64,000 nucleotides of DNA from an uncultured Algibacter sp. GTDB lineage: Bacteria > Bacteroidota > Bacteroidia > Flavobacteriales > Flavobacteriaceae. Position numbers and translations under genes: made by a program. Position 1 is the stretch's first letter. Every line of letters starts with the position of its first letter. The notes under the pieces were generated by a model. That model was not told the DNA's origin. It was given only the letters and a program-made list of their open reading frames with translations, and made no database searches. The stretch is taken from assembly GCA_947502405.1 (NCBI GenBank), contig CANMZT010000006.1:1-64000 (forward strand), read 5' to 3'. Positions 5,275 through 21,976 of this stretch are shown piece after piece.

Positions 5275-5292
5275 TTATTTGCCAATACAAAA
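5275..5292. other. Far-end attachment site (displaced original mnmE 3' end)
   Basis: The plus strand reads ttatttgccaatacaaaa. On the minus strand this encodes Cys-Ile-Gly-Lys-TAA, the same C terminus as the intact mnmE at 21959-21976. It is therefore probably the original mnmE tail pushed away when the element integrated. The 5163-5485 gap contains this site, one GGGCAACAAA motif (5330-5350) and a terminator (5439-5464), and no gene. Confidence 0.85.
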
Positions 5293-5329
5293 AGTAAGTA
5301 TTGTTTGTTTATAGGTGTTTGGTAGTGTT

Positions 5330-5350
5330 GGGCAACAAATGGGAAACAAA
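5330..5350 (+). repeat. Inner-end repeat shared with the mnmE-proximal end (candidate integrase arm site)
   Basis: The block gggcaacaaat-g-ggaaacaaa lies 37 bp inside the far att copy. The same block, with one base changed (a for g), lies at 21843-21863 near the other end in direct orientation. Tyrosine recombinases often bind such arm-type repeats flanking the core. The assignment is inferred from position and repetition. Confidence 0.55.
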
Positions 5351-5438
5351 TACAAGAGTATAAAGAGAATATTTAGAATAGATATTAACAAAACCTCTTG
5401 TTAGTATATCCTCTCCAAAAATAAGTAATCCCTATAAA

Positions 5439-5464
5439 AAAACCGCTCCTTTTGGAACGGTTTC
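5439..5464 (-). terminator. Rho-independent terminator after the DUF6266 gene
   Basis: The stem aaccg(c)tcc / gga(a)cggtt (about 5441-5462, loop tttt) is followed on the minus strand by a run of T. It lies about 25 nt beyond the stop at 5486 and is the last functional signal before the element end. Confidence 0.85.
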
Positions 5465-5485
5465 TCATTTACTATTTAGATGCGT

Positions 5486-6127
5486 TTAAGCTGCCGTACC
5501 AGAGCCTAAATAGATACTGTTTGATACCTGACTATCATCTTCTGATACAAATGCCATAAATAGCTCTACATTGTCTCCTGAATAGGTGTTTGGTAAACTG
5601 ATAGTTTGAGAACCAACTGTTCTGTTTGCGCCTGTCAAGGTGTAAATAGATTCTTTTTTTGATGGATTATATACTAATACCATTGCTCTATCAGTTGCAT
5701 TAGCATTTCCTTCTGCTGAATTATCTCCCCAACTAAATGTAGCTTCTCCAGCCGTTGTTAAGTCCGTAGCACCATTTAAAACACCTGATAATGAACCACG
5801 ACTTATTAATGCGTTGGTATAATCAATTACAAAGTTGGGTGCTGTTCCTGTGATTGCATTGTTTAAGATGTAAGACATTGCTGCATTGAACTCTGTACGC
5901 TTGTTAGCGAAGCTTTTGTAACCAACTTTAATAAAAGCCTTATTGGCTTGCAAGAATGATAGCGTGGTTGCAAATTTAGTCCGCTGGTTAACTTGCCCTT
6001 CTGTTCTCGGATTAGCAACACTTGAAGGCTTAATTCTGATATAATCAATTCCTTTCCAGTTTCCACCGACTATATTCCCTACTTTTCCCGATAGTCCTCC
6101 TAAGATTCCTTGTGATATTTTACCCAT
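5486..6127 (-). CDS. DUF6266-family protein
   Basis: This 213-residue protein begins with a Gly-rich amphipathic segment (GKISQGILGGLSGKVGNIVGG) read here as GKISQGILGG then LSGKVGNIVGG, followed by WKGIDYIRIKP and NPRTEGQVNQRTKF. That N terminus is the hallmark of the DUF6266 family of Bacteroidota. The rest is beta-rich and ends in GSGTAA. There is no signal peptide. The function of the family is not known to me. The gene stands alone at the far end of the integrative element with its own terminator and a long 5' region. Family members often lie near mobile genes, so a particle-structure or surface role is possible but unproven. Confidence 0.75.
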   Translation of the reverse strand: MGKISQGILGGLSGKVGNIVGGNWKGIDYIRIKPSSVANPRTEGQVNQRTKFATTLSFLQANKAFIKVGYKSFANKRTEFNAAMSYILNNAITGTAPNFVIDYTNALISRGSLSGVLNGATDLTTAGEATFSWGDNSAEGNANATDRAMVLVYNPSKKESIYTLTGANRTVGSQTISLPNTYSGDNVELFMAFVSEDDSQVSNSIYLGSGTAA

Positions 6128-6530
6128 TACTCTATTATTTAAAAATTAATACACGTTTGGACTTGGTACGGACTTAATTCGGCTTAAACAAACTCAAGAC
6201 AATAATAGGTTTATTTACAATTGATTGTTATGTAGTGGTTTCTTTTGCTTTGTATTGTTCTTTTTTACCCTACAAAGCCCAACTAATTATTTTTAAAAAG
6301 AAAAATAGAAAAAAGAAAACAGTACTCTTGATGGCGTGGGGAATGGCGACAAGGTTTTTAGGAAAATTATTGCTTAATACTTGAACCTTAGAAGCGAAAG
6401 CAAAAAGACTGCTGCAAAAATTTTTCTAAAACCCTTTAGGGCTTGACCTTTTCGGCATTATGCGGTTGGTGTGGTAGCCATCTATATTTGTGACCTTTTT
6501 TGTTTATTTTAATTACCGAAATTAAAATCT
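6128..6530. other. Divergent intergenic region between DUF6266 and the HNH-like gene
   Basis: This 403-bp AT-rich stretch separates two divergently transcribed genes. A TAnnTTTG-type -7 box (tatatttg, 6483-6490) lies 40 bp before the plus-strand gene at 6531. A short GC-richer patch (6341-6480) contains the small hairpin ccct-tt-aggg (about 6432-6441) but no convincing open frame. I see no tRNA or other RNA gene. Confidence 0.5.
6483..6490 (+). promoter_or_regulatory. Bacteroidota -7 box for the HNH-like gene
   Basis: The sequence tatatttg matches TAnnTTTG exactly and lies 40 bp upstream of the ATG at 6531. No TTG is found at the ideal 19-bp distance, so the promoter is only partly supported. 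Confidence 0.4.
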
Positions 6531-7568
6531 ATGAAGTGTAAAATTTGTTTAACAGAAGATGCTACTAAAAAGGGGTCTCATATTGTACCTGCCTTTATAC
6601 TCAAAACTCTATTCGAAAGAAACAAAGAATTTGTTGTGTCAATTGGTAATGAAGCTGTACAAAATCATATTGGCCGTGAACTTACTCCTGAAAAGATAGA
6701 AGAATATATGGGCAGAGAAATAAAAGATGAAGAGATTGAACAAAACTTTATTCCGTTTATAGAGGACTATATCTTTTGTGATAATTGTGAGAAGAAATTG
6801 GGATATATCGAATCTGTATATGCAGAAAAAATACATAATAAGATTAGTGAAGACGAAGGGAATAAAAATCATAAAATTGTATTTGATAATGATTTAGGGC
6901 TTATTTCTCTTTTTTGGTATTCTGTGATTTTCAGGATGTCTATAGCAGAGCATAATCCAAAAAAGCTTAAAAAAAAGGAAGAGAATGCGCTAAGAAACTA
7001 TTTGAATATTAACTTGAAAGATACAGTTGCTGAATTAATAGAACATACAGATAACAACATATCTAAAAATTGCCCATATCCAATTGCCATTTTTTTTAAT
7101 TCTAATGCAGTTAATAAACTATCAAGTAATACTGTAGTAGGTATACCAAAGTATGTCAATCCTTATTTTTTTATAATAAATGAATATATAATTGTTCAAT
7201 ATCATAAAAAAACACAGGTAAACGGAATGAAACATAGTTTTTTTGGTTTGGAAAAAGTGTATGAACCTACCGAAGAGGTTAATTATGATGGTAATAAGGA
7301 ATGTACCATATGTATAATAGAAAATAATAGCTGGGAAGAGATTAAAACAAAAACATTCGAATTAGCGGCAAAATTAAAACATCAAGACTTTGTAGAGATG
7401 TTCAGCCTTGTAGCCAATCATCTAAAGCTTTCTTTTACTAAACAAAACGTAGCCTATTTTATTAATCGAATATTATATGAAGACTGTGCGTTTGCTGATA
7501 GGTATGATAAAGGCAGAGTATTAAATATTTTGAAAGAAGAATTGAACAAACTACCTAAAATAGTATAA
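6531..7568 (+). CDS. Putative HNH/treble-clef zinc protein (nuclease-like), function unknown
   Basis: This 345-residue protein starts with C3-x2-C6, then SHIVP (residues 16-20), and later C83-x2-C86. A CxxC - SHIxP - CxxC order is typical of degenerate HNH or treble-clef zinc-binding proteins. The His in SHIVP would be the candidate catalytic or zinc-binding residue. The remaining 250 residues are mixed alpha/beta with no recognisable motif. It is the only gene of this size on the plus strand in the element. It is flanked by a DUF6266 gene and by a GC-rich noncoding stretch rather than being in the hsd operon. Such proteins occur in accessory and defence regions, so an antiviral or DNA-targeting role is reasonable, but no function is assigned. 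Confidence 0.6.
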   Translation: MKCKICLTEDATKKGSHIVPAFILKTLFERNKEFVVSIGNEAVQNHIGRELTPEKIEEYMGREIKDEEIEQNFIPFIEDYIFCDNCEKKLGYIESVYAEKIHNKISEDEGNKNHKIVFDNDLGLISLFWYSVIFRMSIAEHNPKKLKKKEENALRNYLNINLKDTVAELIEHTDNNISKNCPYPIAIFFNSNAVNKLSSNTVVGIPKYVNPYFFIINEYIIVQYHKKTQVNGMKHSFFGLEKVYEPTEEVNYDGNKECTICIIENNSWEEIKTKTFELAAKLKHQDFVEMFSLVANHLKLSFTKQNVAYFINRILYEDCAFADRYDKGRVLNILKEELNKLPKIV

Positions 7569-8296: not shown

Positions 8297-8878
8297 TTAT
8301 TGATTCAAAATCTTACTGTATTCTCTTGTATTTAGAAACTGACCAAAAGCAAAGAAGGCTTCATCTAATTTCTTTAAATCTTTGATATTCTGTGATTCTA
8401 TAAATGGTAAATATCTCTCGAAATAAAACTGCTCTTTAGCTTTATTATTAATTGATGTATTTGAAATATTAGACCAATTCTCTTTATGAATAAATAAAAA
8501 GGCTCTGTGTATATGCTGGTCGTAAATAGGGTATTTATTTGGTTTTATAATATGCAATAAAAATATCTTCCAAACGGCTGATATATTTCGAAACTCATTC
8601 TTAAAATACTCTATATCTAAATTAGCATCATTCTTTAAAGCATTAATAATTGAAAGTTTACTTGTAATTTTAGTGTCTAATGACTTTTGTTTTAATACAC
8701 TCAATTTCATTCCATTCTTCCACTTGTATAAGTTTTGAATATCTGTATTGGTAAGTGTTTCTTTAACTATTGATTTATTGTAAATAGCTTCATTTGAAAA
8801 AGAATATAACTTTGACCAAGCTGAAATAAAACTATTTAAGTCAGTTGCTTTATTACATTCTAAATTGATAAGATTCAT
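8297..8878 (-). CDS. Small protein resembling HhH-GPD DNA glycosylases, last gene of the hsd operon
   Basis: This 193-residue soluble protein is almost all helical. Residues 116-126 read YPIYDQHIHRA, comparable to the (F/Y)PvDxHv.R segment with the catalytic Asp in helix-hairpin-helix (HhH-GPD) DNA glycosylases; here the Asp would be D120. The Gly-rich helix-hairpin-helix and lysine of endonuclease III are not visible, so a lyase activity is not supported. The gene starts 13 nt after the stop of the PD-(D/E)XK/DUF5655 gene and is cotranscribed with the type I R-M genes. The fold assignment is my inference. The protein could act on modified DNA or serve as a regulator of the system. Confidence 0.45.
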   Translation of the reverse strand: MNLINLECNKATDLNSFISAWSKLYSFSNEAIYNKSIVKETLTNTDIQNLYKWKNGMKLSVLKQKSLDTKITSKLSIINALKNDANLDIEYFKNEFRNISAVWKIFLLHIIKPNKYPIYDQHIHRAFLFIHKENWSNISNTSINNKAKEQFYFERYLPFIESQNIKDLKKLDEAFFAFGQFLNTREYSKILNQ

Positions 8879-8891: not shown

Positions 8892-9794
8892 CTAAATAGC
8901 TTGTTTTATAAGACTCATTATATATTCTAAATCGTCTGTATTCTTGATTACCAATTCATAATCTCCATTTCCCCAATGACCAATATTAGAAACATCACGC
9001 ATCAATTTTTTAGAGTCATCGAGTTCACCACTTTTTAAGTTTATCCATAGCTTAATACCACTTTTTTGAATTAATATATCACAGATGATGCGGTTACCTT
9101 TAAACGCTATTCTTTTCTTACGAGGTATTATTTCAATATCTTCTTTAAAGTTTAAAATTGTATCTCTAAAAGTTTCATATAGTTCAACAATATCATCTGT
9201 TTTATTGGCTGTATGGTCTTCTTCTGTGTAAACTTTTATCTCTTTAGTAACAGCTTGTAGTTCTGTATTACTTGAGGTAATAGGCTTTATACTTTCTGCT
9301 GACTTACTTTTCTTTATTTGATTTACGCTTATTAAATTATTCTCATAACGCTTTACTTCCCATAACTCAATAGCAATATCTTTAAAGTTAGTTGCAGTCT
9401 TTTGATTATCTGTAAAACCTGTTGAAACAAAAACGACTCTTGTTTGACTCCAATCAACATCGGTACGTTTTAAATTTTGTTTTAAAGTTTCGTTATACTC
9501 TACAATAAAGTCTGCTTTGTTTTCGAGCATTAAACTCAAATAGGTAAAACCTTGGTCAACAACACTAATATTTTTACTACGCTTATATTCAATAATTATA
9601 AAAGCATTTGATTGTGTATCGTAAGCTAAAGTGTCAATACGTTTATTTTTTATAGAGAACTCCGATTTTACTAATTGTAAATTCATTAGTTCACTCAAAT
9701 TACTTTCAAAAAGTGATTGTATCTCTTTTTCTAATTTAAAAGGCTTTTCCTTTACTGTACTTATGTCGTTTGAATGTACTTTATATAAATTCAT
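8892..9794 (-). CDS. PD-(D/E)XK nuclease-like protein with C-terminal DUF5655 domain
   Basis: This 300-residue protein has an N-terminal nuclease-like core: R52-I-D54-TLAYD followed by AFIIIE69-Y-K71-R, matching the D...ExK signature of PD-(D/E)XK enzymes. Residues about 130-150 (VVFVSTGFTDNQ and IELWEVKRYE) continue that fold. The last 100 residues (VELYETFRDTIL to SLIKQAI, with IGHWGNGDYEL) match the DUF5655 domain seen in NucS-like and predicted-transport proteins. The gene lies 24 nt after hsdR on the same strand and 13 nt before the small glycosylase-like gene, so it is probably in the hsd transcript. A DNA-targeting accessory role in restriction is plausible; substrate and partner are unknown. 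Confidence 0.7.
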   Translation of the reverse strand: MNLYKVHSNDISTVKEKPFKLEKEIQSLFESNLSELMNLQLVKSEFSIKNKRIDTLAYDTQSNAFIIIEYKRSKNISVVDQGFTYLSLMLENKADFIVEYNETLKQNLKRTDVDWSQTRVVFVSTGFTDNQKTATNFKDIAIELWEVKRYENNLISVNQIKKSKSAESIKPITSSNTELQAVTKEIKVYTEEDHTANKTDDIVELYETFRDTILNFKEDIEIIPRKKRIAFKGNRIICDILIQKSGIKLWINLKSGELDDSKKLMRDVSNIGHWGNGDYELVIKNTDDLEYIMSLIKQAI

Positions 9795-9818: not shown

Positions 9819-12800
9819 TTAATTGATTTCACACTTATAACGTTTCCAGTACTCTTGTAACGTAGTGGTAGGCATATTACCGTTTAGTTTTTCAATTCTT
9901 CTTAATTCTCTACAAATACAGGCTATTAATGCGTTAGTCGCTTGGTCTATTTCTTTAGGTAAATACTGTTCGTCATCTAAAACATCTTCGTAATTAATAA
10001 AACACTTATTAACTCTATCCGTCATTTTAGATAAGGTAGATTGAGGAATTAAACTTTTTAATTTGATTCCTTCCTCTATATCCGCTTTATTTTCTGTGGT
10101 TGTTTTAGCTTCTTTTAATGCCTTTTTGGCTTTAATTCTATCTCTTTGACTTTGCCAAAAGTTAATTGCTTGCATTGCTCCTCGAATTAAGGATACAACG
10201 ACACTTGGTTCAAAAATAGGTGCTGGTTGCATAATAGTATTGTTTATTGGTTCAATTAATGTTCTTTCAAAATCATCACAAAGCTGATTGAGAATGTCTT
10301 TTGTCTCTCTTTTAAAGAAGTCTCCAAGGTTTTTATTGATTATTACATACTTCCTGTAAAGCCTTTCAAAATCTGAGTAGATTTCTTCTTGTGTGAATGC
10401 CGAACCATCATCAGTAATCTTAGCAATCAATCTCTTGCCTAAATTATCTGACTCTATATACTTAAAGAAACCCTCTATCTTATCTTCAAAATCCTTGATT
10501 AACTCTGCAATGGCTTCTTCTTCCTGATTTCTTTTTTCAATGACTTTAAGAATATTGTATTTATACTTATTCGGTTGTTCTGGGTCTGTAGGATTAGGAT
10601 TTTTGGTCTTGGTCTTTTTCTCTTTTTCTTCTCCTGGTGCTACAATACCAATACGATTATCAAAGTAAATCTCTACATCATCAATTATTTCATCTGGACG
10701 ATTAATCGTGTTATAAATTAAATTGTACTTTCTCCAAAACTGTAGAAATGCTTCTTCACTAAACTTAGGGTTCAGTTCTATTACGAACTCAATTAGATTT
10801 AATATTTTGAAGTAAGAGCCTATTGACTTTTTTAAGTGCTTTGCTTCTTTAGGGTTATTATTTATGTATCGCTCAAAGCCTTCTTCCATATTAAGAACTA
10901 TAGAAATATCATTGCTCCCTTTTTGATATTTCTTGAAGTCTTTGAAATGGTCACTGTAGATTGAATGGTCTTTTAGCTCCGTATAATAAACCCCTAATTT
11001 TTCTTCATCACCTAATGGGTCAAAATCGGAAACAACTACATTACTGAAATGCTCAAAAGCTGACTTTATATTCTTTACATTGACATTCTTGTATGAGAAA
11101 TCTACAATCTTACAATCATTCTTATATTTAGCTGTTCTGTTTACTCTTGATATGGTTTGTATAGCATTGATACCCTTGATTTCCTTGTCGAGGAATAATG
11201 TATGTAACTTGGGTTCATCAAATCCTGTCTGTAGCTTATCTACGACTATTATCAATCCATTCTTAGCTAATTTGAAATTTTGAAGTACTGATTTTTCACT
11301 CAAGCCATCATTTAGACTGGAACTGCTCTGATATTCTTGACTATCTGAATACACAATATAAATAGGTGCATTCTTAAAATCTTCATACTTTTTTAGTTGT
11401 GTTAAATCGTTAAAATATTTCTGAATAAAGCCTTTGTATTTGATAGCCGCTGATATTGAAGAAGCTGCTAACATTGCTTTAGCTTTTCTTCTAATGTTTG
11501 GATATACCGCTGTGACTAATCTTTGAGCTACAAACTTTGATATTGCCTCAATACGTTCTTTATTAGCATAGATTTTCTTTTTTCTAATCGCATATTTTCT
11601 ACCTTCTTCATCAATGCCTGTATCTGTATTGTCTGGAATCTCATCATAGCCATAATCATTTTCGAAACCTTCTAATTCATTATCAGGTATTTCAAAGAAC
11701 ATCTTAGCCGAAACTGGAACTATACCTTTGATTGGGTTGAGAATGTAGCCATCTTGTATGGCTTCTTTCATTGTATAACTATCAAAAGGAATCCATATCT
11801 TTTCAGCTTCTGCATACTTGTTATACTCACCAAACCTTGCTAATGTGTGGTCGCTTGGTGTAGCTGTAAAACCTACTATTAGGTTCTTTTTAGTCGCTTG
11901 TTCCTTATATGATTTGCTATTATCAAAGCTCGATTGTAATTCATCAAATACACTAACCATTTCTGAATGCTGAACACCACTTTGGCTTCTGTGTATCTCA
12001 TCAATTAAAAAAGCAATTCTTAGTTTGGATAACTTATTGGAAATATTTGATTCATCAGAATCTATTATCTCTTTTATTGAAGAGAATTTTTGAACGTTGA
12101 CTACAACTATTCTTTTATCACTGGTCAATGCTTTAATAAAGCTCTTTTTGTCTGAGGCTTCAATGAACATTCCTTTTTGAATATTCATATTGTGCATCTT
12201 ACTATCTAATTGGTCACGTAGTTGTAGCCTATCTACCACCAACATTATTTTATCATAGACATAGGCATCATTTCTTCTTAAATCTTTGAGCTGTAATGCT
12301 GTCCAACCTATGATATTGCTCTTTCCAAATCCTGCTGCATATTGCAACAGCAATGAATAGACGGTTTTGTTATTTTGGTATTTACTCCTTTTGTGAACTA
12401 ACTCTTTGATTTGTTCTTCTCCTAAGCCCCTTGCTCGTAAATCTTGTTCTAATTTGTTAAGGAAGTAATCTGGGTCATTCTCGTGCAATAGAAATTCATC
12501 TATTTTACCAATTACCTTATCTGTACCGAATTTTTGTTTCGGTCTTGGTGCTATGAGCCTACCGTCATTGTGCTTGTATTCTTTAGTTCTGCTTCCTTCT
12601 TTTTTGATTAACTCTCGTTCGATAAAGTTGTAGTAGAGGATTTCTTTTTCAATCATCCTTTTATCATAGAGAGCTTTGAAGATTTCTTCAAAGCGACCTT
12701 GTTTAGTATCGTGTTTTTCTCTTAGCGGATAAGGCTTAAAGTCTTTGAATAACTTCTTCTCGTAGGTCTCAAAATCATAACTACCTGCATTTACAGTGTT

Positions 12801-13520: not shown

Positions 13521-14839
13521 TCTACTACTTTTATTTTGCCCGTAACCACATCATTGATTACCGTTTTACGAAGTTCTTTAAGGTGGTCTATTTGCTTTCC
13601 AATGTTTGTGATAATAGCATCTATAGTACTGGTCTTATCATCTAAGTATTGAGCTATTTCTGTTTGTTCAGTTTTAGTTTGCGGAATGTGAATGAAGAAG
13701 TCATTCACCTTTTCCATTTTAAGATTGATACGAGTGAAGCCCTTGCCTTCAACTATAAGCAACTGTCGATAACTATCCGACAACAATAGGTAATTGATAA
13801 AATGAGGGTTGTGCTTATCTGTTTTCAATCTGTAGCCCTTACAAAAACTATTCAAGTAAGTCTCGCCTAATTCCTTATCTAATACAGAAGATTTGCCAAT
13901 ATCTTCATAGCCTTCCGAACTCATTAAAAAGAATACGTCACCTTTACGGACTTGATTTTGATTTTCGGTTGGCTCAACTACAACTGTACCTAAATTATCT
14001 TCTGCTATGTAGGTGTTTGCAGCAATATTGGTAAATGGAATAAAACCTTTGTTATGCTCGTGGTCGTCTTGTCTAAAATCATCACCGCTCTTGCCAGACA
14101 AACCACTATATAAATTACCAATATCCTTTAATCTGTGTCTTGTCCAATGTTTAGGAATGTCAATCCCTATTTCAGAATCTTTCAACTCTGCATCTTTATT
14201 TAAGCCTTTGGTAACGGCATCATTGATTATAGATTTTCGTAACTCGGTGTAGTAGTCTATTTTCTTTTGTAATAGACTTACTTTTTTATCTATAACTTGA
14301 GTCTTGGCATCTAAGTATTGAGATATGGTTTCTTGTACATTAAGGCTTTCAGGATAAATTAATAATGTACTTCCTAATTCTTCTTTATTCAAGTGTGGCT
14401 GGGCAGCTCTTAATGAATCAACTACCAGTTGGTCATTAAATACATACTTACTAAGTAATACGTAAGATAAAAACTTAGGGTTGATTAGCCTGTCGTTAGG
14501 TGTAATTACCATATCATAACCTGATACAGAACCGATATATTTTGAAGTTATGATAGCACTATCGCCTGTATAAGCACCACTCCTCACGACTATTATTTCA
14601 TTTTTTTTGAGTATTGGATTTCTATCATAAGGTAAGTCATTTGGGTCTACGTAAATTAAATTATTTTCCGATATTTTTCCTTTAAAAATGTTCGTTGCCC
14701 TTATAATTGGCAAACCATTTTCGAGTTCTTTTGGTGGTTGCCCTAAACCATATCTGATAGCGCCAAATGATTTAATTCTATTCCAATGCCAATTGTCTGG
14801 TAAATCATACGACCATTCTATGTTTTCATTATTCATCAT
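13517..14839 (-). CDS. hsdS: Type I restriction-modification specificity subunit
   Basis: This 440-residue protein has the two-fold repeated architecture of HsdS: target-recognition domain 1 (about 1-165), a central conserved helix with QETISQYLDAKTQVIDKKV (about 168-188) and YTELRKSIINDAVTKGL, target-recognition domain 2 (about 225-395), and a matching distal helix with EIAQYLDDKTSTIDAIITNI, HLKELRKTVINDVVTGKI. The two TRDs differ in sequence, so the target should be bipartite and asymmetric. The start overlaps hsdM by 4 nt and the end overlaps hsdR by 4 nt. No inverted partial hsdS copies lie nearby, so phase-variable TRD shuffling is not indicated within the window. Confidence 0.95.
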   Translation of the reverse strand: MMNNENIEWSYDLPDNWHWNRIKSFGAIRYGLGQPPKELENGLPIIRATNIFKGKISENNLIYVDPNDLPYDRNPILKKNEIIVVRSGAYTGDSAIITSKYIGSVSGYDMVITPNDRLINPKFLSYVLLSKYVFNDQLVVDSLRAAQPHLNKEELGSTLLIYPESLNVQETISQYLDAKTQVIDKKVSLLQKKIDYYTELRKSIINDAVTKGLNKDAELKDSEIGIDIPKHWTRHRLKDIGNLYSGLSGKSGDDFRQDDHEHNKGFIPFTNIAANTYIAEDNLGTVVVEPTENQNQVRKGDVFFLMSSEGYEDIGKSSVLDKELGETYLNSFCKGYRLKTDKHNPHFINYLLLSDSYRQLLIVEGKGFTRINLKMEKVNDFFIHIPQTKTEQTEIAQYLDDKTSTIDAIITNIGKQIDHLKELRKTVINDVVTGKIKVVE

Positions 14840-16902
14840 AGGGCTAATTCGGCTTCCAGTTGTTTTAAATCTTTTTCCAAGTCTTCTATATCAGTTGTGA
14901 TTTTTGCCACACTTCTAAGTCCCTCTGGTTGGTAGAATATTTTATTAAAGTTGAGTTCTACACCTATCACATTATCTAAATATTCAAAAGGACGGCTCAC
15001 ATACTTAGCCATAAAATCAGCTATGTTTTGTGAGTTAGTGGCTTCATCTGGGCTGTATGGTATTATCTCATAATCTTTCTCCAGGTCTTTGGTCAACTCT
15101 GCTGTTATGGCTATAGACTCTCCTTTTGTTTTAGTGGCTTTTTTGTAGCTCACTTTTATATTGATTTTACCACAACCTAAGGCAGTTTCGTTTCCATCAT
15201 TTTCTATAATGGTGTTTTTGTCAGTATCGTAGTAGTAAGTAATTTCATCCGACACTACTCTAAGATTGGATTCTTTGTAGTCTATGGCAGCAATTTGAGG
15301 TTTTAGCACTTTGTCGTAATACTCTTTTAGATTATTGCAGTTTTCATCATCAAAAGAGGTAATGGTAAATTCGGTCAGTTCCTTTGTTTCCCCATCTATC
15401 TCATAGCTGACTTTTGACGGATTGAGTTTTATGGATTTCGCTTCTACGGTATCACCAGCTCTGTTGGTTTTGGTTGGCATTTCAATAGACTTGCCATCTT
15501 CATCTACATTAGTTAGTATAATAGCTTGTTTGTTGTAATAGAAGTTCCATTTGTCAAATACTTTGGCAAAGTCATTATCTTCAAAAGCGGTGAAGGCATT
15601 TACTATCAAGTTTCTGTGTTCTTGATTCATTTGCCTACGTTTCTTGCCCTTACTCTTTTTGAGTTGTTCCCAATGGTCGCTACCGTCTATGAGTATGAAT
15701 TTATCTTGTCTATCGGCTGGCTTATTCTTATTATAAATCCATAAATACGTATAGATTCCTGTATTGAAGAACTCATCTGTTGGCATTTGAATAATGGCTT
15801 CTACCCAATCTTGCTCAAAGAAGTATTTACGAATATTGCTTTCTCCACTACCTGCATCACCACTAAACAAAGTTGAGCCATTATGAACTACAACCGATAA
15901 GCCATCATCTGCTAAATGGTGCAATATGTGTTGGGTAAATAAAAACTGGCCATCAGAAATGGAAGGAAGTGCAACGAACCTTTCTGTGGTATCGTTTTTA
16001 ATATCTTTTTGATAGCCTTTCCAATCTACACCGTAAGGTGGATTGGCTACGACAATATCAAATTTCTTTTCAATGTGGAAGATTCGAGTTAAGGTATTGC
16101 CGTGGTTTATATCACTATCGTTTCTAAACCTACTTTCAATCTTAGCTAAGGCATACAAAGTATCATTCCATTCATCACCGTGGGTTTTGGTAGGTCTGTT
16201 GAATTTTTGCTGTATTTTATCTTCTACTCCAAACAATAAGTTTGCACCACCACAAGTGGGGTCATAAATGGTAAGGAACTTACCATTGTCATCAATCTTG
16301 GCGGCAATGATTTCTGTAATAAGGTCGATAATGTCTTCAGGTGTATATTGTTCCCCTGCTGTTTCTGCTGAAATATCTGCCCACTTTCTCTTGATATGTT
16401 CTTCAAGTGTGGTTATCTCAGAGTTATTAAAAGGTGTTAAGTCTATTTCACTCCACGCCTTTACGGTATCAAATAGTATGTCTTTCTTTTTGAGTAATCC
16501 TGAAATACCTGATATATCTAAAAACTTCTCTTCATCCGTACCCTTATCTACGCCTAATAAATATCTGGTCTCTGGGTCAAATGCTCTGATATAGGCATAA
16601 AAATCAACATCAAAGGTTTTATCGTTTTGACAAATGGTTTTTAACGTTTTTCCTTCTCGGATAGCATAGTCATTATAACCTAATCCTTCCAGTCGGAACA
16701 TTTCAATAAAGTCATCAATATTGTCTCTGCCAACTTCTTCTTCTAATCTATTGGCTTCACGAATGAGCCTACTCTCTACCATTACGAGAGCAAAAAAGGG
16801 CATCATATATTTTGGAAAGTCGGATTGCTTTATCCCTGCACCTATGAGTAGGTCTGCCGTTTTCCAAACGTCAGGTTCGTGTTTTAAGATATTATTGTTC
16901 AT
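14836..16902 (-). CDS. hsdM: Type I restriction-modification DNA N6-adenine methyltransferase
   Basis: This 688-residue protein carries the N6-adenine methylase fold: an N-terminal helical domain, GEQYTPEDIIDLI before the SAM motif DPTCGGANLLF (214-224), and the catalytic NPPY at 287-290 followed by GVDWKG. It methylates the adenine of the host recognition sequence together with HsdS. The length is greater than the usual 500-540 residues because of a C-terminal region (about 480-640, rich in TKTKGESIAITAEL-type beta/charged sequence) before a terminal coiled-coil (VAKITTDIEDLEKDLKQLEAELAL read in parts). The ATG directly follows the stop of the upstream XRE-type regulator with no spacer. Confidence 0.95.
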   Translation of the reverse strand: MNNNILKHEPDVWKTADLLIGAGIKQSDFPKYMMPFFALVMVESRLIREANRLEEEVGRDNIDDFIEMFRLEGLGYNDYAIREGKTLKTICQNDKTFDVDFYAYIRAFDPETRYLLGVDKGTDEEKFLDISGISGLLKKKDILFDTVKAWSEIDLTPFNNSEITTLEEHIKRKWADISAETAGEQYTPEDIIDLITEIIAAKIDDNGKFLTIYDPTCGGANLLFGVEDKIQQKFNRPTKTHGDEWNDTLYALAKIESRFRNDSDINHGNTLTRIFHIEKKFDIVVANPPYGVDWKGYQKDIKNDTTERFVALPSISDGQFLFTQHILHHLADDGLSVVVHNGSTLFSGDAGSGESNIRKYFFEQDWVEAIIQMPTDEFFNTGIYTYLWIYNKNKPADRQDKFILIDGSDHWEQLKKSKGKKRRQMNQEHRNLIVNAFTAFEDNDFAKVFDKWNFYYNKQAIILTNVDEDGKSIEMPTKTNRAGDTVEAKSIKLNPSKVSYEIDGETKELTEFTITSFDDENCNNLKEYYDKVLKPQIAAIDYKESNLRVVSDEITYYYDTDKNTIIENDGNETALGCGKINIKVSYKKATKTKGESIAITAELTKDLEKDYEIIPYSPDEATNSQNIADFMAKYVSRPFEYLDNVIGVELNFNKIFYQPEGLRSVAKITTDIEDLEKDLKQLEAELAL

Positions 16903-17214
16903 TTACTTTGTGTCCTTTTTAAAATCTGATTTGTATTTCAATCCTTCTTCTGCCAACTTCAAGGCTTGAAAAGCCTGCTTATCATTTGCTATTAATTCGA
17001 AAACTTGGTCTGCTAACCATAGTGCCATAGTACTATCGTGGTCGAGTTTAAAGATTTTGATAAGCTGTAGCACTTGTTCTCTTTTAGCTCGTCTTTCGCC
17101 TCTTTCCATTTTACTGAGATACGCAGTATCAATATCTAACTTTGCAGATAAGTGTCTGAGTAGCATTTCTTGTTCTTCTCTTTTAGACCGTATTAAGTCT
17201 CCGAATTTGTTCAT
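16903..17214 (-). CDS. XRE-family HTH regulator leading the hsd operon
   Basis: I use the ATG at 17214 (MNKFGDLIRSKREEQ), giving 103 residues. An upstream in-frame ATG at 17274 would add a hydrophobic 20-residue stretch absent from this family. The N-terminal half is a Cro/C1-type helix-turn-helix (LRHLSAKLDIDTAYLSKMERGER). Its stop is adjacent to the hsdM start, so regulator and R-M genes form one transcript. By analogy with controller proteins it probably adjusts R-M expression when the element enters a new host. No operator could be assigned with confidence upstream. Confidence 0.85.
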   Translation of the reverse strand: MNKFGDLIRSKREEQEMLLRHLSAKLDIDTAYLSKMERGERRAKREQVLQLIKIFKLDHDSTMALWLADQVFELIANDKQAFQALKLAEEGLKYKSDFKKDTK

Positions 17215-17278
17215 TTTATGCTTGTCTATAAATGATTTGTTAAAAATAGACAAATACAGCACAAAAAATAACAATCGA

Positions 17279-17572
17279 TTATAATTCTTTTTCTTGTCGC
17301 TTAAAAGGTCTATAATGAATATCCAGTAACCGTTCTATATCACTCACTTTATAGTATATTTTATTCTCAATTTGTGAGTAGGCTATGATGCCCTTATTAC
17401 GCCAGTTTTGTGCTGTACTACTACTTATATTCATTAATTGTAAAAAGTCTGCATTATCGATGAGTTGTGCTTTTAATGCTGTCTTTTTAATGGTAGCTAA
17501 TTCTTTTGTAAGCTTTTCTAATCGTTGCTCTATTGCTTTGAGCCTTTCTTTATGTGGGTGCTGTAATTCCAT
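17279..17572 (-). CDS. Small HTH protein (MerR/excisionase-like) of the element
   Basis: This 97-residue protein has a coiled-coil N terminus (KERLKAIEQRLEKLTKEL) followed by a winged HTH-type segment, ADFLQLMNISSSTAQNWRNKG, IIAYSQIENKIYYKVSDIERLL, like the helix-turn-helix domains of Bacteroidota integrative elements. It probably binds DNA to regulate the element or to assist excision. It lies 65 bp upstream of the hsd regulator and 49 bp downstream of the Rep-like gene on the same strand. It resembles the 99-aa HTH protein at 18526-18825 in plan (coiled coil, then HTH), so the two may be distant paralogues or a heteromeric pair. Confidence 0.75.
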   Translation of the reverse strand: MELQHPHKERLKAIEQRLEKLTKELATIKKTALKAQLIDNADFLQLMNISSSTAQNWRNKGIIAYSQIENKIYYKVSDIERLLDIHYRPFKRQEKEL

Positions 17573-17621: not shown

Positions 17622-18521
17622 TTATGATTTTAAATGTTCAGTTATTTGAGATTGTATCTTTTCTATCACTTGATTATTAAAGGGGTTTTCTTCGATTGTT
17701 TTTAAGAGTTTAGAGTAATTTTTTCGGTCTAATAGATAGCTGTGCTTATGATGTTTTTTTAAGCCCTTAACGACTTCCTTATCATTCATAGCAGCTATGA
17801 GTTTGATTTCCTTAGGCTGCAACGCAGCATAGGGAATCATTGGTTTTTTCTTAATCGCTTTATACACAGTAGCAAGATGTTCCGATAGTCTTTTAAAATT
17901 TTCTTTATTGACTAAATCCTGTACCTTGTAGATAGGTATAGGGTCTTTTTTACGGGCATAATAGTATTTTGCTTTGGCTTCTAATTCAAATCTGAAATAA
18001 GGTGCTTTTAACTCCTGTCTTTCATTGTTCTTTACCTCATAGGTCTTATCATAGCCCTTAATATTGTACTCTGTCGCTTTATAATGTGCGCCGTATATTT
18101 TAGTGCCGTTTCGCATTACTTGAGGGAATTTGCCTTTATAATCTGCCCAACTTTCAAAAATGGGTTGTGGGTCTTCTTGTATGACAATACCGCAGGCAAT
18201 GTGTTTGACTATAGCATCATAAATACTGAAAGGGAAATGGTTGTCTAATAACTGTATGGCGTGTTGCGCTTTTGCGAAAGCGAACTCTTCATAATTATTG
18301 CCTAAATAAAACTTGTGTAATGAGTTTTTAATAATCAGTTTATCATCCTTAAGCTGTAACCAAAGATTCTTTATTGCTGATTTATAGTACACTATGTAAC
18401 CGTGAGTGCTGTAATGAGGTGACCACTGCAATCCACACCATTCAAAAGGCTCTATAGATTTTTGCGCAACCTTATGAGGCAGTTGTTGTAACTGCTTTTC
18501 TATGTGGATGGTGTCGTACAA
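17622..18521 (-). CDS. Putative replication-initiator-like protein (phage gene II/X type)
   Basis: This 299-residue protein contains GYDKTYEVKNN followed by APYFRFELEAKAKYYY (about residues 155-190), a pattern like the Y(D/N)K..E ... lRfEl segment of replication initiators of filamentous phages and small rolling-circle replicons. A clear HUH motif is not obvious to me. The first 120 residues include HGYIVYYKSAIKNLWLQL and regular beta strands. It is packed between two HTH genes (4 nt after the 99-aa HTH gene). If correct, the excised element could replicate as a circle. The call is inference from local motif resemblance and context; an alternative is an element-specific regulatory protein. 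Confidence 0.4.
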   Translation of the reverse strand: MYDTIHIEKQLQQLPHKVAQKSIEPFEWCGLQWSPHYSTHGYIVYYKSAIKNLWLQLKDDKLIIKNSLHKFYLGNNYEEFAFAKAQHAIQLLDNHFPFSIYDAIVKHIACGIVIQEDPQPIFESWADYKGKFPQVMRNGTKIYGAHYKATEYNIKGYDKTYEVKNNERQELKAPYFRFELEAKAKYYYARKKDPIPIYKVQDLVNKENFKRLSEHLATVYKAIKKKPMIPYAALQPKEIKLIAAMNDKEVVKGLKKHHKHSYLLDRKNYSKLLKTIEENPFNNQVIEKIQSQITEHLKS

Positions 18522-18525: not shown

Positions 18526-18825
18526 CTAACTATTTCTTATGAGGTACTCTGTAGCTTGTGCGTCTATCTCATCTTTTGTTATTTGACGATTACGCTGTAG
18601 CCACTGGTCTAATTCAGTACGGTTGAAATACAACTTCTTGCCCTGTGGGCAAAAGTGTGGTATTTGCTTTTGACTGGTTAGTTTGTAAAGATGTGAGGCA
18701 CTTATATCTAAATAGGCAGCAGCCTCATTTAGATTTAATACGTCTTTTTTGAGCAAGTTTTGCTCTTGCAACATCGTCTCGATGTTTGCGAGTTTTTGAA
18801 GAATGATTTCTTGTTCCATTGTCAT
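18526..18825 (-). CDS. Helix-turn-helix (excisionase-type) DNA-binding protein
   Basis: This 99-residue protein has an N-terminal coiled coil (EIILQKLANIETMLQEQN) and a typical HTH_17/excisionase domain: LNLNEAAAYLDISASHLYKL, TSQKQIPHFCPQGKKLYFNR, TELDQWL. Such proteins act as recombination directionality factors or local regulators in Bacteroidota elements. The start could be M1 or M3. It ends 4 nt before the Rep-like gene, so the two are probably cotranslated. The upstream gap to the 444-aa gene is about 98 bp and probably holds its promoter. Confidence 0.85.
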   Translation of the reverse strand: MTMEQEIILQKLANIETMLQEQNLLKKDVLNLNEAAAYLDISASHLYKLTSQKQIPHFCPQGKKLYFNRTELDQWLQRNRQITKDEIDAQATEYLIRNS

Positions 18826-18923: not shown

Positions 18924-20258
18924 TTATTTCATATCTCTGAAAATGTTGTCAATAACTGTTTTTAATTTCGGATTATTATTCTTTGCAGAACTTAAATGCG
19001 TTTGCTTTAACAAGCTATTACCTTCGGATAAAAACAACATCGAATTTGCGATAGCAACCCATTTAAGATTAGTAAAGTATGGCTGTAACTTTGTAATAAT
19101 GTAATAAAACTGTTTATTATCACAATTTAGATGAACTTTGATATTTAAATTGCTAAAGTCTTTTGCTGTGAGTAGCTTATGAAAATTATCGACTGTTGTA
19201 AAATCTTCTTTCAGCATATCTATTCTTAACTGCAAAGATTTTATTACGGCTAAAAGTGCATTAGTATCCCCTTTAAAACCAAAATAGTTTTTTGGTGTCT
19301 TTTCGTTTTTAGGTTTTGGTGCTGGTGCTTGTTTTAATTTTGGTACAATTTCCTTAAAATAGTCCTTCTCATTTTCAAGCCACTTTTTAATGGTCTTTAT
19401 ATATTGTTTTTCACCTTTATTATATACTTCTGTTAAGGTACGCTGTCTAAATCGGTGGTTTTCGTTGAGTACATCAATATTTAATTTTTCGGCTTGTGAT
19501 ATTAAGCCTTGTTTTTGAAGTTCGGTTGTATCTATTAATGATAAAATATGTTGTGTGCGCCTATATAGCGAAGCCACTAACTCAGTTGGTGTTACTAATT
19601 TTGCAGACACCATACCCAAATAGCGATTCTTACGTGTTACTTCTTTTACAAAGGGTAATGATTGCGTAAGTCTTGGTTTTAAGGGTCTAAAAAAAGGTAA
19701 ATCAAATGGAAACGCTTTTAACCATTTTTGATATGTACTATATAGTAAATTAAGGTCTGTTTTCTCTTTTGCTGGTTTATACTTGTTTACTTCTGTTAAG
19801 TATTTTAATAATGCTTTACATTTATCTTTAGGAAACTTTCCGTCATTTCTTTGAAGGTTTAGTTCAACGAGTTCTAAATATATATGTGACCCTACAGCTG
19901 GCGTACCCATACTCCAGAAACATAGTTCAAAATATTCTGTAATAGCATCAAACCAATCTTCTTTATCAATGTTTTGCTCTATAGTATGCCACGTGTAATC
20001 AACAGCTTTTAAAACCCAAATTGGAATTTGACCGTAAACTTTTTCTTTATCGAATTTAAAACGCTTGTAAAAGTCAGCGTGGTTATCACAACAAAAAGGA
20101 AAACGTTCTAAATAATCTGTGAGTAATTTGTAATTGTGTTTATGTGGGGCACAACAGTTAGGATAATTTTCTGCAAATTCGTACCCTTCAGGCTTCTGAA
20201 TCTCAAATGGGTGTAAGATAAATTCTTTGGCATCAATTTCAATAAATGGTTTTTCCAT
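18924..20258 (-). CDS. Conserved-looking protein of unknown function next to the integrase
   Basis: This 444-residue soluble protein lies directly downstream of the integrase gene (4 nt apart), so it is probably co-expressed with it. The N-terminal part has several Cys and His (NYPNCCAPHKHN at about 33-44 and FPFCCDNHADF at about 53-63), which could bind a metal. The middle is helical (LVASLYRRTQHILSL), and a Lys/Pro-rich linker APAPKPKNEKTPK (about 310-325) separates a C-terminal domain of about 115 residues. I do not recognise the family. The position suggests a role in integration, excision or control of the element. Confidence 0.6.
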   Translation of the reverse strand: MEKPFIEIDAKEFILHPFEIQKPEGYEFAENYPNCCAPHKHNYKLLTDYLERFPFCCDNHADFYKRFKFDKEKVYGQIPIWVLKAVDYTWHTIEQNIDKEDWFDAITEYFELCFWSMGTPAVGSHIYLELVELNLQRNDGKFPKDKCKALLKYLTEVNKYKPAKEKTDLNLLYSTYQKWLKAFPFDLPFFRPLKPRLTQSLPFVKEVTRKNRYLGMVSAKLVTPTELVASLYRRTQHILSLIDTTELQKQGLISQAEKLNIDVLNENHRFRQRTLTEVYNKGEKQYIKTIKKWLENEKDYFKEIVPKLKQAPAPKPKNEKTPKNYFGFKGDTNALLAVIKSLQLRIDMLKEDFTTVDNFHKLLTAKDFSNLNIKVHLNCDNKQFYYIITKLQPYFTNLKWVAIANSMLFLSEGNSLLKQTHLSSAKNNNPKLKTVIDNIFRDMK

Positions 20259-20262
20259 AAGT

Positions 20263-21369
20263 CTATAAATCTATTTGAATACGGTTAGCGGCTTCTTTCT
20301 TCTTTTGGTCAATTACCTTTGCATATATCTGCGTTGTCTTTAGTTCTTTATGGCCTAATAGCTTTGAAACTGTATAAATATCTGTTCCTAAAGTCAACTG
20401 TAGGGTTGCATAAGTATGTCTGGCACAATGAAAAGTAATCGTCTTTGTAATACCTGCTTTCAGCATCCATTGTTGTAATTTGAGATTTGTCCAGGCACTG
20501 TAATGCAATCCTTTAAAAACTGTTTCTTCTGGTTGTCCTTCTTCACCTAATAATTCTCTTGCTTGCTCTGAGATATTAAGTGTTTCAGAACCTTTTGTTT
20601 TCTTCTGTCTAAATCTGATGTAATTGCCGTTCTCTTTAGAGTGTTGCATTTCTGACCATACTAATTTTTCAATATCACTCCATCGTAGACCGGTAAGACA
20701 ACTAAAAATGAATGCCTTTTTGAGTTCTGGAAGCTCACAATCTACCTTGACGATTGCTTGCAATTCGTCATAGGTTAGAAACTCTCTTTCTGGTTCACCT
20801 TGTTTAAACCCTTTTACCTGTTCTGCGGGATTAAGTCTTAAAATACCATCTTTTACGGCTTGTTTAAGCGCAGCATTAAACTTGCCAAAGTAAGAATACT
20901 TTGTATTTAGTGAAAGTTCTTTATTTGCTCTGCCTATGGCTTTTTTATCTAAGTACTCTTTAAATTCTTCTACAAATTTTTTATTGATTTGCTTAAAAGA
21001 AACACCCATCGGCTTGAATGCTTTCATATGTTTAATAAGACTTAGCCAATTACCATAATTACCTTTACTACTACTTCTTTTTTCTGCGAGAACTTCTAAA
21101 TAGCTAATGAAGCTGCCTTTCATTTTTTCTTTATCCTCAAAATCATACAAACCGCTCTGAATTGCAACGTGCTTTTTTGCACGAATGTTTTCAGCAAGTT
21201 CTAAGGTTGCCTTGTTTTCGTCTCTCTGTGCTTTTGTGAGTTTTCCTTGCTGGGGTTCTGGATATAAATACAGTTTTAAATACTCATAACTACGATTTCC
21301 ATTCTCATAATAATCGAGGTATAAGCTTATTTTATTTCCTTTCTTGCGTTTTCTTAAGGTAACTTTCAT
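20263..21369 (-). CDS. Tyrosine recombinase (integrase) of the mnmE-inserted element
   Basis: This 368-residue protein has an N-terminal arm-binding-like region (TLRKRKKGNKISLYLDY), a SAM-like core-binding domain (about 85-190) and a C-terminal catalytic domain. The catalytic set is visible: R229 (TGLRWSD), the H314-x2-R317 box (HCARHTYA), H340 (LLGHKELKTT) and the nucleophile Y349 (QIYAKV); K257 is the probable lysine. This organisation is that of Bacteroidota phage-type integrases. The gene ends the unit closest to the mnmE junction, 12 nt downstream of the excisionase-like gene. It most likely catalyses recombination between the 18-bp sites at 5275 and 21959. Confidence 0.95.
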   Translation of the reverse strand: MKVTLRKRKKGNKISLYLDYYENGNRSYEYLKLYLYPEPQQGKLTKAQRDENKATLELAENIRAKKHVAIQSGLYDFEDKEKMKGSFISYLEVLAEKRSSSKGNYGNWLSLIKHMKAFKPMGVSFKQINKKFVEEFKEYLDKKAIGRANKELSLNTKYSYFGKFNAALKQAVKDGILRLNPAEQVKGFKQGEPEREFLTYDELQAIVKVDCELPELKKAFIFSCLTGLRWSDIEKLVWSEMQHSKENGNYIRFRQKKTKGSETLNISEQARELLGEEGQPEETVFKGLHYSAWTNLKLQQWMLKAGITKTITFHCARHTYATLQLTLGTDIYTVSKLLGHKELKTTQIYAKVIDQKKKEAANRIQIDL

Positions 21370-21380
21370 CTGGTACGGCT

Positions 21381-21740
21381 TTAGTTAAATAAGGATTCTA
21401 TTTGGTATCGGGCAACAATATGTTTTCTTCCAAAGGGTACAGCTTTAAGCTGCCCGCGTTTAATCATTCTTTGTATGGTCCATCTGCTTACTCCAATTAA
21501 TTGAGCAGCTTCAGTAATACTTAAAAAGTCTTTTTGATTTACTGCTATAGCAGTTGTAGGAATAGCAACTTCTGGTTGCATTTCTTCTTTGAGAGTAGTT
21601 TGTACTTTTTCAGTACGCTTGCGTGCCTTATAAGCATACTTAGCGCATTTATCACCGCAGTACTTAGTTACTGTAGTTCGGGCAACAAAGGCGTTACCGC
21701 AATGCTGGCATTTTTTAGGAATATATAAGTTGCTGCTCAT
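21381..21740 (-). CDS. Zinc-finger plus HTH excisionase-like protein
   Basis: I start this gene at the ATG at 21740 (MSSNLYIPKKCQHCG), giving 119 residues. The longer frame to 21851 would translate the 20-bp repeats upstream and is unlikely. Residues 11-30 form a C-x2-C...C-x3-C zinc finger (CQHCGNAFVARTTVTKYCGD in outline), followed by a basic KARKR stretch. Residues about 75-119 are an excisionase-type HTH (ITEAAQLIGVSRWTIQRMIK, GQLKAVPFGRKHIVARYQI). It sits directly upstream of the integrase gene, so it is the best candidate for the recombination directionality factor and regulator of integrase. Confidence 0.85.
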   Translation of the reverse strand: MSSNLYIPKKCQHCGNAFVARTTVTKYCGDKCAKYAYKARKRTEKVQTTLKEEMQPEVAIPTTAIAVNQKDFLSITEAAQLIGVSRWTIQRMIKRGQLKAVPFGRKHIVARYQIESLFN

Positions 21741-21742
21741 AA

Positions 21743-21789
21743 ATGGTGCGTTATGTAGCGAAATGGTGCAACGTGGGGCAATATGGTGC
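21743..21789 (+). repeat. Three ATGGTGC direct repeats with exact 20-bp period (iteron-like)
   Basis: The heptamer atggtgc starts at 21743, 21763 and 21783, exactly two DNA turns apart. The array lies just upstream of the excisionase-like gene (start 21740) and inside the att region. Equal helical phasing points to cooperative binding by one protein, such as the excisionase-like HTH protein or an initiator. Confidence 0.6.
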
Positions 21790-21803
21790 ATCATTTCTCC
21801 TTT

Positions 21804-21894
21804 GTTTGTTGCCATTGGATTTGGGCAACAAATCGCAATAGTGGGCAACAAATAGGAAACAAACTTATCCTAAAAACAACAAAAAGGCAACAAA
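21804..21894. repeat. Cluster of GGCAACAAA motifs (candidate integrase arm sites)
   Basis: The motif ggcaacaaa occurs at 21824-21832, 21844-21852 and 21886-21894, and as an inverted copy (tttgttgcc) at about 21804-21812. The copy at 21843-21863 extends into the 21-bp block shared with 5330-5350 at the far end. Asymmetric numbers of arm sites at the two ends are usual for phage-type attP. No gene lies between 21741 and 21958. Confidence 0.5.
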
Positions 21895-21958
21895 AAAGAG
21901 ATAGAGTTATTAATTAATATCAACAATAACAAGCAGTTACGAAACAAAAGAAAGTAGA

Positions 21959-21976
21959 TTACTTCCCAATACAAAA
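21959..21976. other. mnmE-proximal attachment site
   Basis: The plus strand reads ttacttcccaatacaaaa, which is the last five codons of mnmE on the minus strand with one extra base triplet (TTTTGTATTGGGAAGTAA). It pairs with 5275-5292 as a direct repeat. Element sequence begins just past the stop codon. Confidence 0.85.

What the first reader, a model, noticed from the sequence alone, without database searches (positions are those of the whole stretch)
5275..21976. Integrative element in the 3' end of mnmE in a flavobacterium, with att copies that differ only synonymously
The two 18-bp copies (5275-5292, 21959-21976) both encode Cys-Ile-Gly-Lys-stop and differ only at two third codon positions. 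This fixes the element ends, shows that mnmE's C terminus is restored on integration, and suggests the left copy is the displaced native tail. SGI1-family islands of Proteobacteria use the same mnmE 3' end. Seeing it here with a Bacteroidota-type tyrosine recombinase suggests convergent choice of this site, or a wider mnmE-targeting island family not yet described in Bacteroidota.
Basis: partly seen in the sequence, partly recalled or inferred. Interest (0 to 1): 0.8.

Follow-up and report, generated by a model that had tools for sequence, protein, structure and literature searches.

The report
Defence island inserted in mnmE tail
A 16.7-kb mobile island carrying a restriction system has inserted into the last codons of a tRNA-modification gene and rebuilds that gene's end, and it belongs to a large island family that does the same in many bacteria of the Bacteroidota.

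Summary
In detail: two 18-bp copies (5275-5292, 21959-21976), both encoding FCIGK-stop, bound a 16,684-bp element at the 3' end of mnmE. Same-genus genomes G265 and G304 hold the empty site: mnmE runs straight into the 148-aa gene. Across 18 islands with both ends mapped, the mnmE-side copy ends GGGAAGTAA in 17 and the far copy varies (9 different 9-mers), so mnmE's last codons come from the island and the far copy is the displaced native tail. The family is wide: among the 80 best of at least 582 named loci with a related integrase, 74 sit within 900 bp after mnmE, in several orders of Bacteroidota. Shared are an integrase/excisionase-like/DUF6617/HTH module, a replication gene set, and DUF6266 as last gene, 184-219 bp before the far att. 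Cargo includes restriction systems, Argonaute and metal efflux. No phage-structural or conjugation gene was recognised in the window island. SGI1-type islands use the same site in Gammaproteobacteria, with the same GGGAAGTAA half (PMC9035990, passages). Seven searches of an open-access library showed no Bacteroidota description.

The parts
21959..23350 (-). mnmE (trmE, thdF), 463 aa; host gene whose last codons are the attachment site
   Evidence: Pfam TrmE_N, MMR_HSR1, MnmE_helical
21959..21976 (-). mnmE-proximal att copy; its right half GGGAAGTAA is island-derived
   Evidence: 17 of 18 mapped islands (this one included) carry the same 9-mer here
5275..5292 (-). distal att copy; GGCAAATAA is the displaced native mnmE tail
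   Evidence: empty sites in G265 and G304
21381..21851 (-). 156-aa zinc-finger/HTH_17 protein, likely excisionase (start codon uncertain)
   Evidence: HTH_17 7e-9; PHROG 66 excisionase/regulator 3e-11; clustered in 26 of 27 elements
20263..21369 (-). 368-aa tyrosine recombinase (integrase)
   Evidence: Arm-DNA-bind_5, Phage_int_SAM_5, Phage_integrase; in 27 of 27 elements, which were chosen by it
18924..20258 (-). 444-aa protein, DUF6617 at its C-terminal part
   Evidence: PF20322 2e-27; 26 of 27 elements
18526..18825 (-). 99-aa HTH_17 DNA-binding protein
   Evidence: HTH_17 4e-14; 27 of 27 elements
17622..18521 (-). 299-aa protein, probable replication initiator distantly like Rep_trans; takes the place of the primase/helicase genes of most sister elements
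   Evidence: homologues in 15 of 299 family genomes, own included; 3 of 13 members match Rep_trans weakly, best E 0.012, the window protein itself has no match
17279..17572 (-). 97-aa HTH_17 protein
   Evidence: HTH_17 1.5e-7; 25 of 27 elements
16903..17274 (-). HTH_3 regulator
   Evidence: HTH_3 1.3e-6; 21 of 27 elements
14836..16902 (-). type I restriction-modification methyltransferase (HsdM)
   Evidence: N6_Mtase 1e-51; PADLOC MTase_I 2e-112
13517..14839 (-). type I specificity subunit (HsdS)
   Evidence: Methylase_S 2e-22; PADLOC Specificity_I 2e-71
9819..13520 (-). type I restriction subunit (HsdR)
   Evidence: ResIII, T1R_D3-like; PADLOC REase_I 1.5e-26
8892..9794 (-). PDC-S18 candidate defence protein
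   Evidence: PADLOC PDC-S18 1e-142; DUF5655 2e-11
8297..8878 (-). 193-aa protein, no family match
6531..7568 (+). 345-aa protein, the one annotated island gene on the other strand; no family match over a cut-off
5486..6127 (-). DUF6266 protein, 213 aa, last gene before the distal att
   Evidence: PF19781 3e-98; last gene, 184-219 bp before the end of the far att, in 17 of 18 mapped islands
4716..5162 (-). 148-aa host gene that follows mnmE directly in empty sites
   Evidence: L080 and L083

Best explanation
A site-specific integrative island. Its tyrosine recombinase recombines the island's circular attP with the last codons of mnmE. The exchange lies inside TGYATYGG. The chromosome keeps its own sequence up to that point; the island supplies the rest (GGGAAGTAA), which still spells Gly-Lys-stop, so MnmE is unchanged. 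The native tail is pushed to the island's far end. A small HTH protein beside the integrase probably acts as excisionase. Once excised, the circle is probably replicated by the 299-aa protein, or in most sister islands by a primase and helicase pair. The island pays its way with defence genes: type I restriction-modification plus PDC-S18 here, Argonaute, other restriction systems or metal efflux elsewhere. Shown by sequence: ends, empty site, half-site origin, family-wide targeting. Inferred: excision, replication, route of transfer, cargo benefit.
For: att pair; empty sites in two same-genus genomes; 18 mapped islands with 17 uniform proximal halves and 9 kinds of distal half, against 3 GGGAAGTAA among 27 mnmE genes with no such integrase seen downstream; 26 of 29 fetched family loci and 74 of 80 named loci, the best of at least 582, directly after mnmE; domains of integrase and cargo; the place of DUF6266 predicted the unmapped far end of G141 and led to a far copy with one base deleted in G244; DUF6617 protein 93% identical to that of G073 although mnmE is 75%, which speaks for horizontal movement; the window island's junction reads TTACTT-TTTGTATTGGG-AAGTAA, a perfect 6-bp inverted repeat as expected for core binding sites, seen also in L036 and L037 but only imperfectly in the other 15.
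Against: No excised circle or transfer was observed; no transfer gene was recognised; G+C (33.5%) hardly differs from the flanks (32.3% and 32.9%). Far ends were not found for L046, L051, L058 and L060; L055 and L059 run to contig ends; L061 has only a two-mismatch candidate. GGGAAGTAA is less dominant in the wider set: of 85 distinct sites with an integrase of at least 60% identity 36 have it and 35 have GGAAAGTAA; under 60% identity there are 11 kinds in 26 sites, so the exchange point may differ there.
Confidence: 0.93

Rival explanations
1. The block is a decayed, immobile island: it entered by integration but now persists only as a defence locus.
For: No transfer gene recognised among 14 island proteins; the two att copies differ at two bases.
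Against: The integrase, excisionase-like and replication-type genes are open and conserved; att differences occur in 17 of 18 mapped islands and follow from hybrid half-sites.
Confidence: 0.25
2. The island is a phage satellite that moves in the capsids of a helper phage.
For: Four islands measure 16.5-16.9 kb although their cargo differs; the integrase, HTH and Rep-like layout resembles satellites (recalled).
Against: No head, tail or packaging family matched by the 10 window proteins scanned against PHROGs; the other 14 mapped islands range from 20.5 to 37.5 kb, with a 19th at 42.4 kb. Of 11 viral contigs with a related integrase none shows mnmE, but in 7 of them the integrase lies at the contig start, so only 4 could be judged.
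Confidence: 0.12
3. The island is mobilised in trans by a conjugative element, using the Rep-like protein as relaxase or an oriT mimic.
For: SGI1 in the same site is mobilised by conjugative plasmids (PMC8409611 abstract and passages); 3 of 13 members of the 299-aa family weakly match Rep_trans, the family that includes MobT relaxases (recalled).
Against: No relaxase PF03432 over the cut-off in any of 27 island-bearing genomes (other relaxase families were not searched genome-wide there); the Rep_trans matches are under the cut-off.
Confidence: 0.4
4. The 18-bp copies are a chance pair and the region is ordinary core genome.
For: The copies are not identical.
Against: 0 of 100 shuffles; empty sites; relatives.
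Confidence: 0.01

Closest known systems
SGI1 and SGI1-related elements of Gammaproteobacteria (IMEs at the 3' end of trmE/mnmE)
   Same: Last 18 bp of mnmE as attB, imperfect synonymous direct repeats, element-derived half GGGAAGTAA (or GGGAAGTGA) at one side and native variable half at the other (PMC9035990, PMC3285670 and PMC11237444, passages).
   Different: No SGI1 backbone gene recognised; integrase has the Arm-DNA-bind_5/SAM_5 make-up; cargo is defence and metal efflux; host phylum. The integrases themselves were not compared.
CTnDOT / NBU-type integrative elements of Bacteroidota
   Same: Tyrosine recombinase of the phylum's usual domain type (Pfam names; that it is the usual type is recalled); primase and DUF3987 genes in sister islands, common on such elements (recalled).
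   Different: No conjugation or MobP relaxase gene found; targeting of one site in mnmE; IntDOT is described as site-selective (PMC6316836, passages).
Cryptic integrated elements with archaeo-eukaryotic-type primases (PMC5862659)
   Same: Integrated elements with primase and integrase but no phage or conjugation genes are one of the three classes described (passages).
   Different: mnmE is not among the sites named in the passages read (tRNA genes, intergenic regions, GMP synthase, tmRNA); the BT4734-like family is mentioned there as belonging to no clade.

Membership tests
SGI1 family | Integration into the last 18 bp of trmE/mnmE | tested here: met
   site definition from PMC3285670 and PMC9035990 passages
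SGI1 family | Backbone genes traN, traG, traH, mpsA, mpsB, sgaC, res | tested here: not met
   14 island proteins (all annotated ones; ORFs of 70 and 87 aa were left out) scanned against Pfam, with mnmE and the 148-aa gene: no match of those kinds. Gene list from PMC9035990 passages
SGI1 family | Integrase of the SGI1/PGI/AGI int clade | not tested
   No SGI1 integrase could be fetched
CTnDOT-type ICE | Type IV secretion and relaxase genes | tested here: not met
   Pfam scan of the 14 window island proteins; PF03432 not over cut-off in 27 genomes
CTnDOT-type ICE | Arm/SAM-like/catalytic tyrosine recombinase of Bacteroidota type | tested here: met
   (domains); the type label is recalled
Integrative and mobilizable element (IME) | Own relaxase or a recognised oriT | tested here: inconclusive
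   PF03432 negative; Rep_trans-like signal weak; oriT not testable
Prophage or phage satellite | Virion, packaging or capsid-redirecting genes | tested here: not met
   10 of 14 island proteins against PHROGs: no head, tail or packaging match; hsdM, hsdS, hsdR and PDC-S18 were not scanned there
Bacteroidota mnmE island family (proposed here) | mnmE-proximal related integrase, shared HTH/DUF6617 module, far-end DUF6266, native mnmE tail displaced | tested here: met

The most novel reading that the evidence does not exclude
A phylum-wide class of Bacteroidota islands, neither phage nor conjugative element, has converged with SGI1 on the highly conserved FCIGK-stop end of mnmE, even to the same GGGAAGTAA half-site, and spreads by an unknown route in which the far-end DUF6266 protein has a part.
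Probability: 0.25. Interest if true: 0.72.

Novelty: new variant of a known kind. Interest (0 to 1): 0.56.

Why it matters
mnmE ends in FCIGK in 193 of the 194 loci whose mnmE C-terminus was read here (one FCVGK; loci overlap in part), and SGI1 uses the same end in Gammaproteobacteria, so this is a landing site that crosses phyla. The Bacteroidota islands give a second island world at that site, with defence systems and metal efflux in place of drug resistance. They give a ready rule for finding island ends in these genomes (mnmE tail at one end, DUF6266 then a second mnmE tail at the other), and they raise a testable question: how islands without recognised transfer genes reached hosts in several orders.

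Tried and rejected
Chance repeat: rejected. Core genome: rejected by the empty sites. Foreign base composition as evidence: G+C is nearly flat, no help. Viral att sites: 16 viral stretches match TTYTGTATYGGGAAGTRA, which a collection of that size could give by chance (my estimate; its size in bases was not measured); only L295 lies at an mnmE gene and only L287 has a related integrase beside the site. Fold of the 299-aa protein alone: mean pLDDT 32, useless. PDB profiles of its family: nothing relevant. Plasmid, phage and viral searches for the 299-aa protein: no match. DUF6266 in viral contigs: none. A constant island size: holds only for four islands.
Full report
OBSERVATION. On the minus strand the two copies read TTTTGTATTGGCAAATAA (5275-5292) and TTTTGTATTGGGAAGTAA (21959-21976); both translate to FCIGK-stop and differ at two wobble bases. 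The degenerate mnmE-tail pattern has 2 matches in the window and none in 100 shuffles. ARAGORN finds no tRNA gene in the window. The element is 16,684 bp.

ANATOMY. From the mnmE side: a 156-aa zinc-finger/HTH protein (excisionase-like), a 368-aa tyrosine recombinase with Arm-DNA-bind_5, SAM-like and catalytic domains, a 444-aa DUF6617 protein, a 99-aa HTH_17 protein, a 299-aa protein, a 97-aa HTH_17 protein, an HTH_3 regulator, type I hsdM, hsdS and hsdR, PDC-S18, a 193-aa protein, a 345-aa protein on the other strand, and DUF6266. The own genome holds this integrase once; its other five integrase matches are 25-32% identical.

EMPTY SITE. The genus has 10 genomes in the collection. In G265 (L080) and G304 (L083) mnmE is followed directly by homologues of the window's 148-aa gene (87% and 82%) and 443-aa gene (74% and 66% over the part read). 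The stretch between the left copy and the 148-aa gene aligns with the mnmE downstream spacer of both, best in its last 80 or so bases. G044 carries a related island (73% integrase, 49-locus table) and G300 a 47% integrase after mnmE; in the other five genomes neither this integrase nor the 148-aa gene was found within the 1.5 kb read, so they neither help nor hurt.

HALF-SITES. In 18 islands with both ends mapped, the proximal copy ends GGGAAGTAA in 17 and GGAAAGTAA in 1; the distal copies show nine different 9-mers (GGGAAGTAA in 5 of 18). The two copies part upstream of TG (second and third base of the 18-mer agree in only 5 and 8 of 18) and again after GG. Between, TGYATYGG agrees except at the Cys wobble in 1 and the Ile wobble in 4 of 18. 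Therefore the exchange lies in TGYATYGG, mnmE's final Gly-Lys-stop is island DNA, and the far copy is native. Control: of 27 mnmE genes with no such integrase seen downstream (one, L279, has only 36 bp of downstream sequence), 3 end GGGAAGTAA and 7 GGAAAGTAA, 14 kinds in all; of 85 distinct sites with an integrase of at least 60% identity, 36 and 35; of 26 sites with less similar integrases, 6 and 3. So the close part of the family uses GGRAAGTAA, 71 of 85, and the more distant part is not uniform. The two bases that differ in the window are best read as the two parents of a hybrid site.

FAMILY. Of 299 genomes of the bacterial family, 58 have the integrase at E 1e-60 or better. Of the 29 relatives fetched at 60-83% identity (L007-L035), 26 lie directly after mnmE; L033 is at a contig start, and L034 and L035 are elsewhere. 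Seven of seven loci at about 50% identity (L069-L075) are also after mnmE, and so are L067 and L068, while L062-L066 (61%; two of them the same places as L034 and L035) show no mnmE end. In a draw of 395 genomes of the phylum, 65 have a match at E 1e-40; 16 of the 29 new loci fetched have mnmE upstream within the 1.5 kb read, among them all ten best. Hosts of the 74 include Winogradskyella, Aequorivita, Salibacter, Saprospiraceae, Algoriphagus, Fulvivirga, Sphingobacterium, Gynurincola, Labilibaculum and Prolixibacteraceae (record titles; their orders are recalled). A tree of 92 integrases, left from 157 after dropping identical rows and rows over 93% alike (72 labelled mnmE, of which L125 and L133 by hand, 13 other, 7 edge), shows the mnmE label spread through most of the tree, needing 11 changes where shuffles need 18.3 on average and none of 500 is as low; it is not one clade, and rows with other targets are nested inside. 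That tree is midpoint-rooted and has long branches.

SHARED GENES AND CARGO. In 27 islands (at most the first 20 kb for the nine whose far end was then unmapped) ORF clustering gives: integrase 27, 99-aa HTH 27, excisionase-like 26, DUF6617 26, 97-aa HTH 25, primase/helicase 24, HTH_3 21, Piwi protein 20, DUF6266 17. Only representatives were named: BT4734-like primase N domain and PriCT_2/DUF3987 (L038), and an Argonaute (L038, PADLOC pAgo 3e-287). The window island and those of G073 and G083 lack the primase pair and have the 299-aa protein in its place. Cargo in the islands sampled includes Eco57I-like and type III restriction systems, a type I restriction subunit, and P-type ATPase and efflux genes. 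DUF6617 is 93% identical between the window and G073 while their mnmE proteins are 75% identical, and the 299-aa protein 45%, a mosaic that speaks for exchange between islands.

DUF6266. It is the last gene, ending 184-219 bp before the end of the far att, in 17 of 18 mapped islands (L057 has none). At genome level it is present in 23 of 27 island genomes, and genomes with the integrase have it more often (34 of 58) than those without (24 of 241); these copies need not lie in the islands, and related strains are not independent. Its place predicted the missing far end of G141 (42.4 kb) and led to a far copy with one base deleted in G244; in L058 it is followed by an unrelated ORF and no copy was found. 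No paper in the library names DUF6266.

REPLICATION AND TRANSFER. The 299-aa family (15 of 299 genomes) keeps a KxYxKT...RxE pattern. Three of 13 members match Rep_trans weakly, best E 0.012, and the window protein has no match; in a search of 100 genomes with Rep_trans two of the ten matches at E up to 1 are members, neither over the cut-off. I infer a replication initiator with about 60% confidence. No relaxase PF03432 was over its cut-off in 27 island genomes; the one weak match (G027) lies on another contig than the island. How the islands travel is not known.

LITERATURE. SGI1-type islands at trmE are established: 18-bp imperfect repeats (PMC3285670, passages), GGGAAGTAA or GGGAAGTGA as the island-derived half and a variable native half (PMC9035990, passages), tandem arrays (PMC2297512, passages). 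Searches of the held library for mnmE, trmE or 'tRNA modification GTPase' with Bacteroidota, Flavobacteria, integrase, hotspot, attachment-site or integration-site words showed no Bacteroidota case; of most hits I saw only the listing, and one search listed 15 of 117. The IME review's table names trmE for SGI1 and MGIVchHai6 (PMC5704250, passages). The TIGER/Islander database (PMC12424338, whole text) may list such islands as rows; I could not check it. Most subscription papers are not held.

VERDICT. A real, well-bounded island at mnmE, member of a large Bacteroidota island family that I found no description of; mechanism of the known tyrosine-recombinase kind. New, as far as these searches go, are the family, its breadth, its shared ends, and the match with the SGI1 half-site.

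Noticed in passing
L038:7846-9957 and 19 other islands: A 703-aa Argonaute-type protein (pAgo) is clustered in 20 of 27 mnmE islands; only the L038 copy was scanned. The window island has none.
   Followed up: partly
window 5275-21976; L036, L037, L057: Four islands with different cargo measure 16,544, 16,684, 16,768 and 16,873 bp, the other 14 mapped ones 20.5-37.5 kb; a packaging limit for this branch is possible.
   Followed up: no
L299-L302 (G059): Four mnmE-tail copies on one strand within 64 kb, alternating GGCAAATAG and GGAAAGTAA, with no integrase of this family among ORFs of 120 aa or more: perhaps a tandem array made by other recombinases.
   Followed up: partly
L309 (G201): A decayed island: mnmE, a 113-aa integrase-like remnant (judged by eye) next to IS21-like genes (family recalled), DUF6266, then a second mnmE tail 11 kb on.
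   Followed up: partly
L310-L312 (G014): Two identical mnmE-tail copies 41 kb apart without an integrase of this family among ORFs of 120 aa or more.
   Followed up: no
L062-L066: A 61%-identical integrase branch with no mnmE end nearby; in G226 and G141 it is a second copy beside the mnmE island elsewhere in the genome. L063 has DUF6266 about 1.8 kb before the integrase.
   Followed up: partly
L199: Integrase and excisionase-like gene follow a transporter-like ORF that ends early (139 aa) instead of mnmE: possibly a secondary site.
   Followed up: no
L226-L229: Of 5,374 E. coli genomes with mnmE-tnaC matches, 775 do not cover 80% of the junction in one place; the three read have an extra gene there, no integrase.
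   Followed up: no
L287 4638-5384: A viral contig with a related integrase (33% identical) beside an exact mnmE-type 18-mer outside mnmE, a possible free attP.
   Followed up: no
window 8297-8878 and 6531-7568: Two cargo proteins (193 and 345 aa) near the restriction genes and PDC-S18 with no convincing family match; candidates for unknown defence genes.
   Followed up: no
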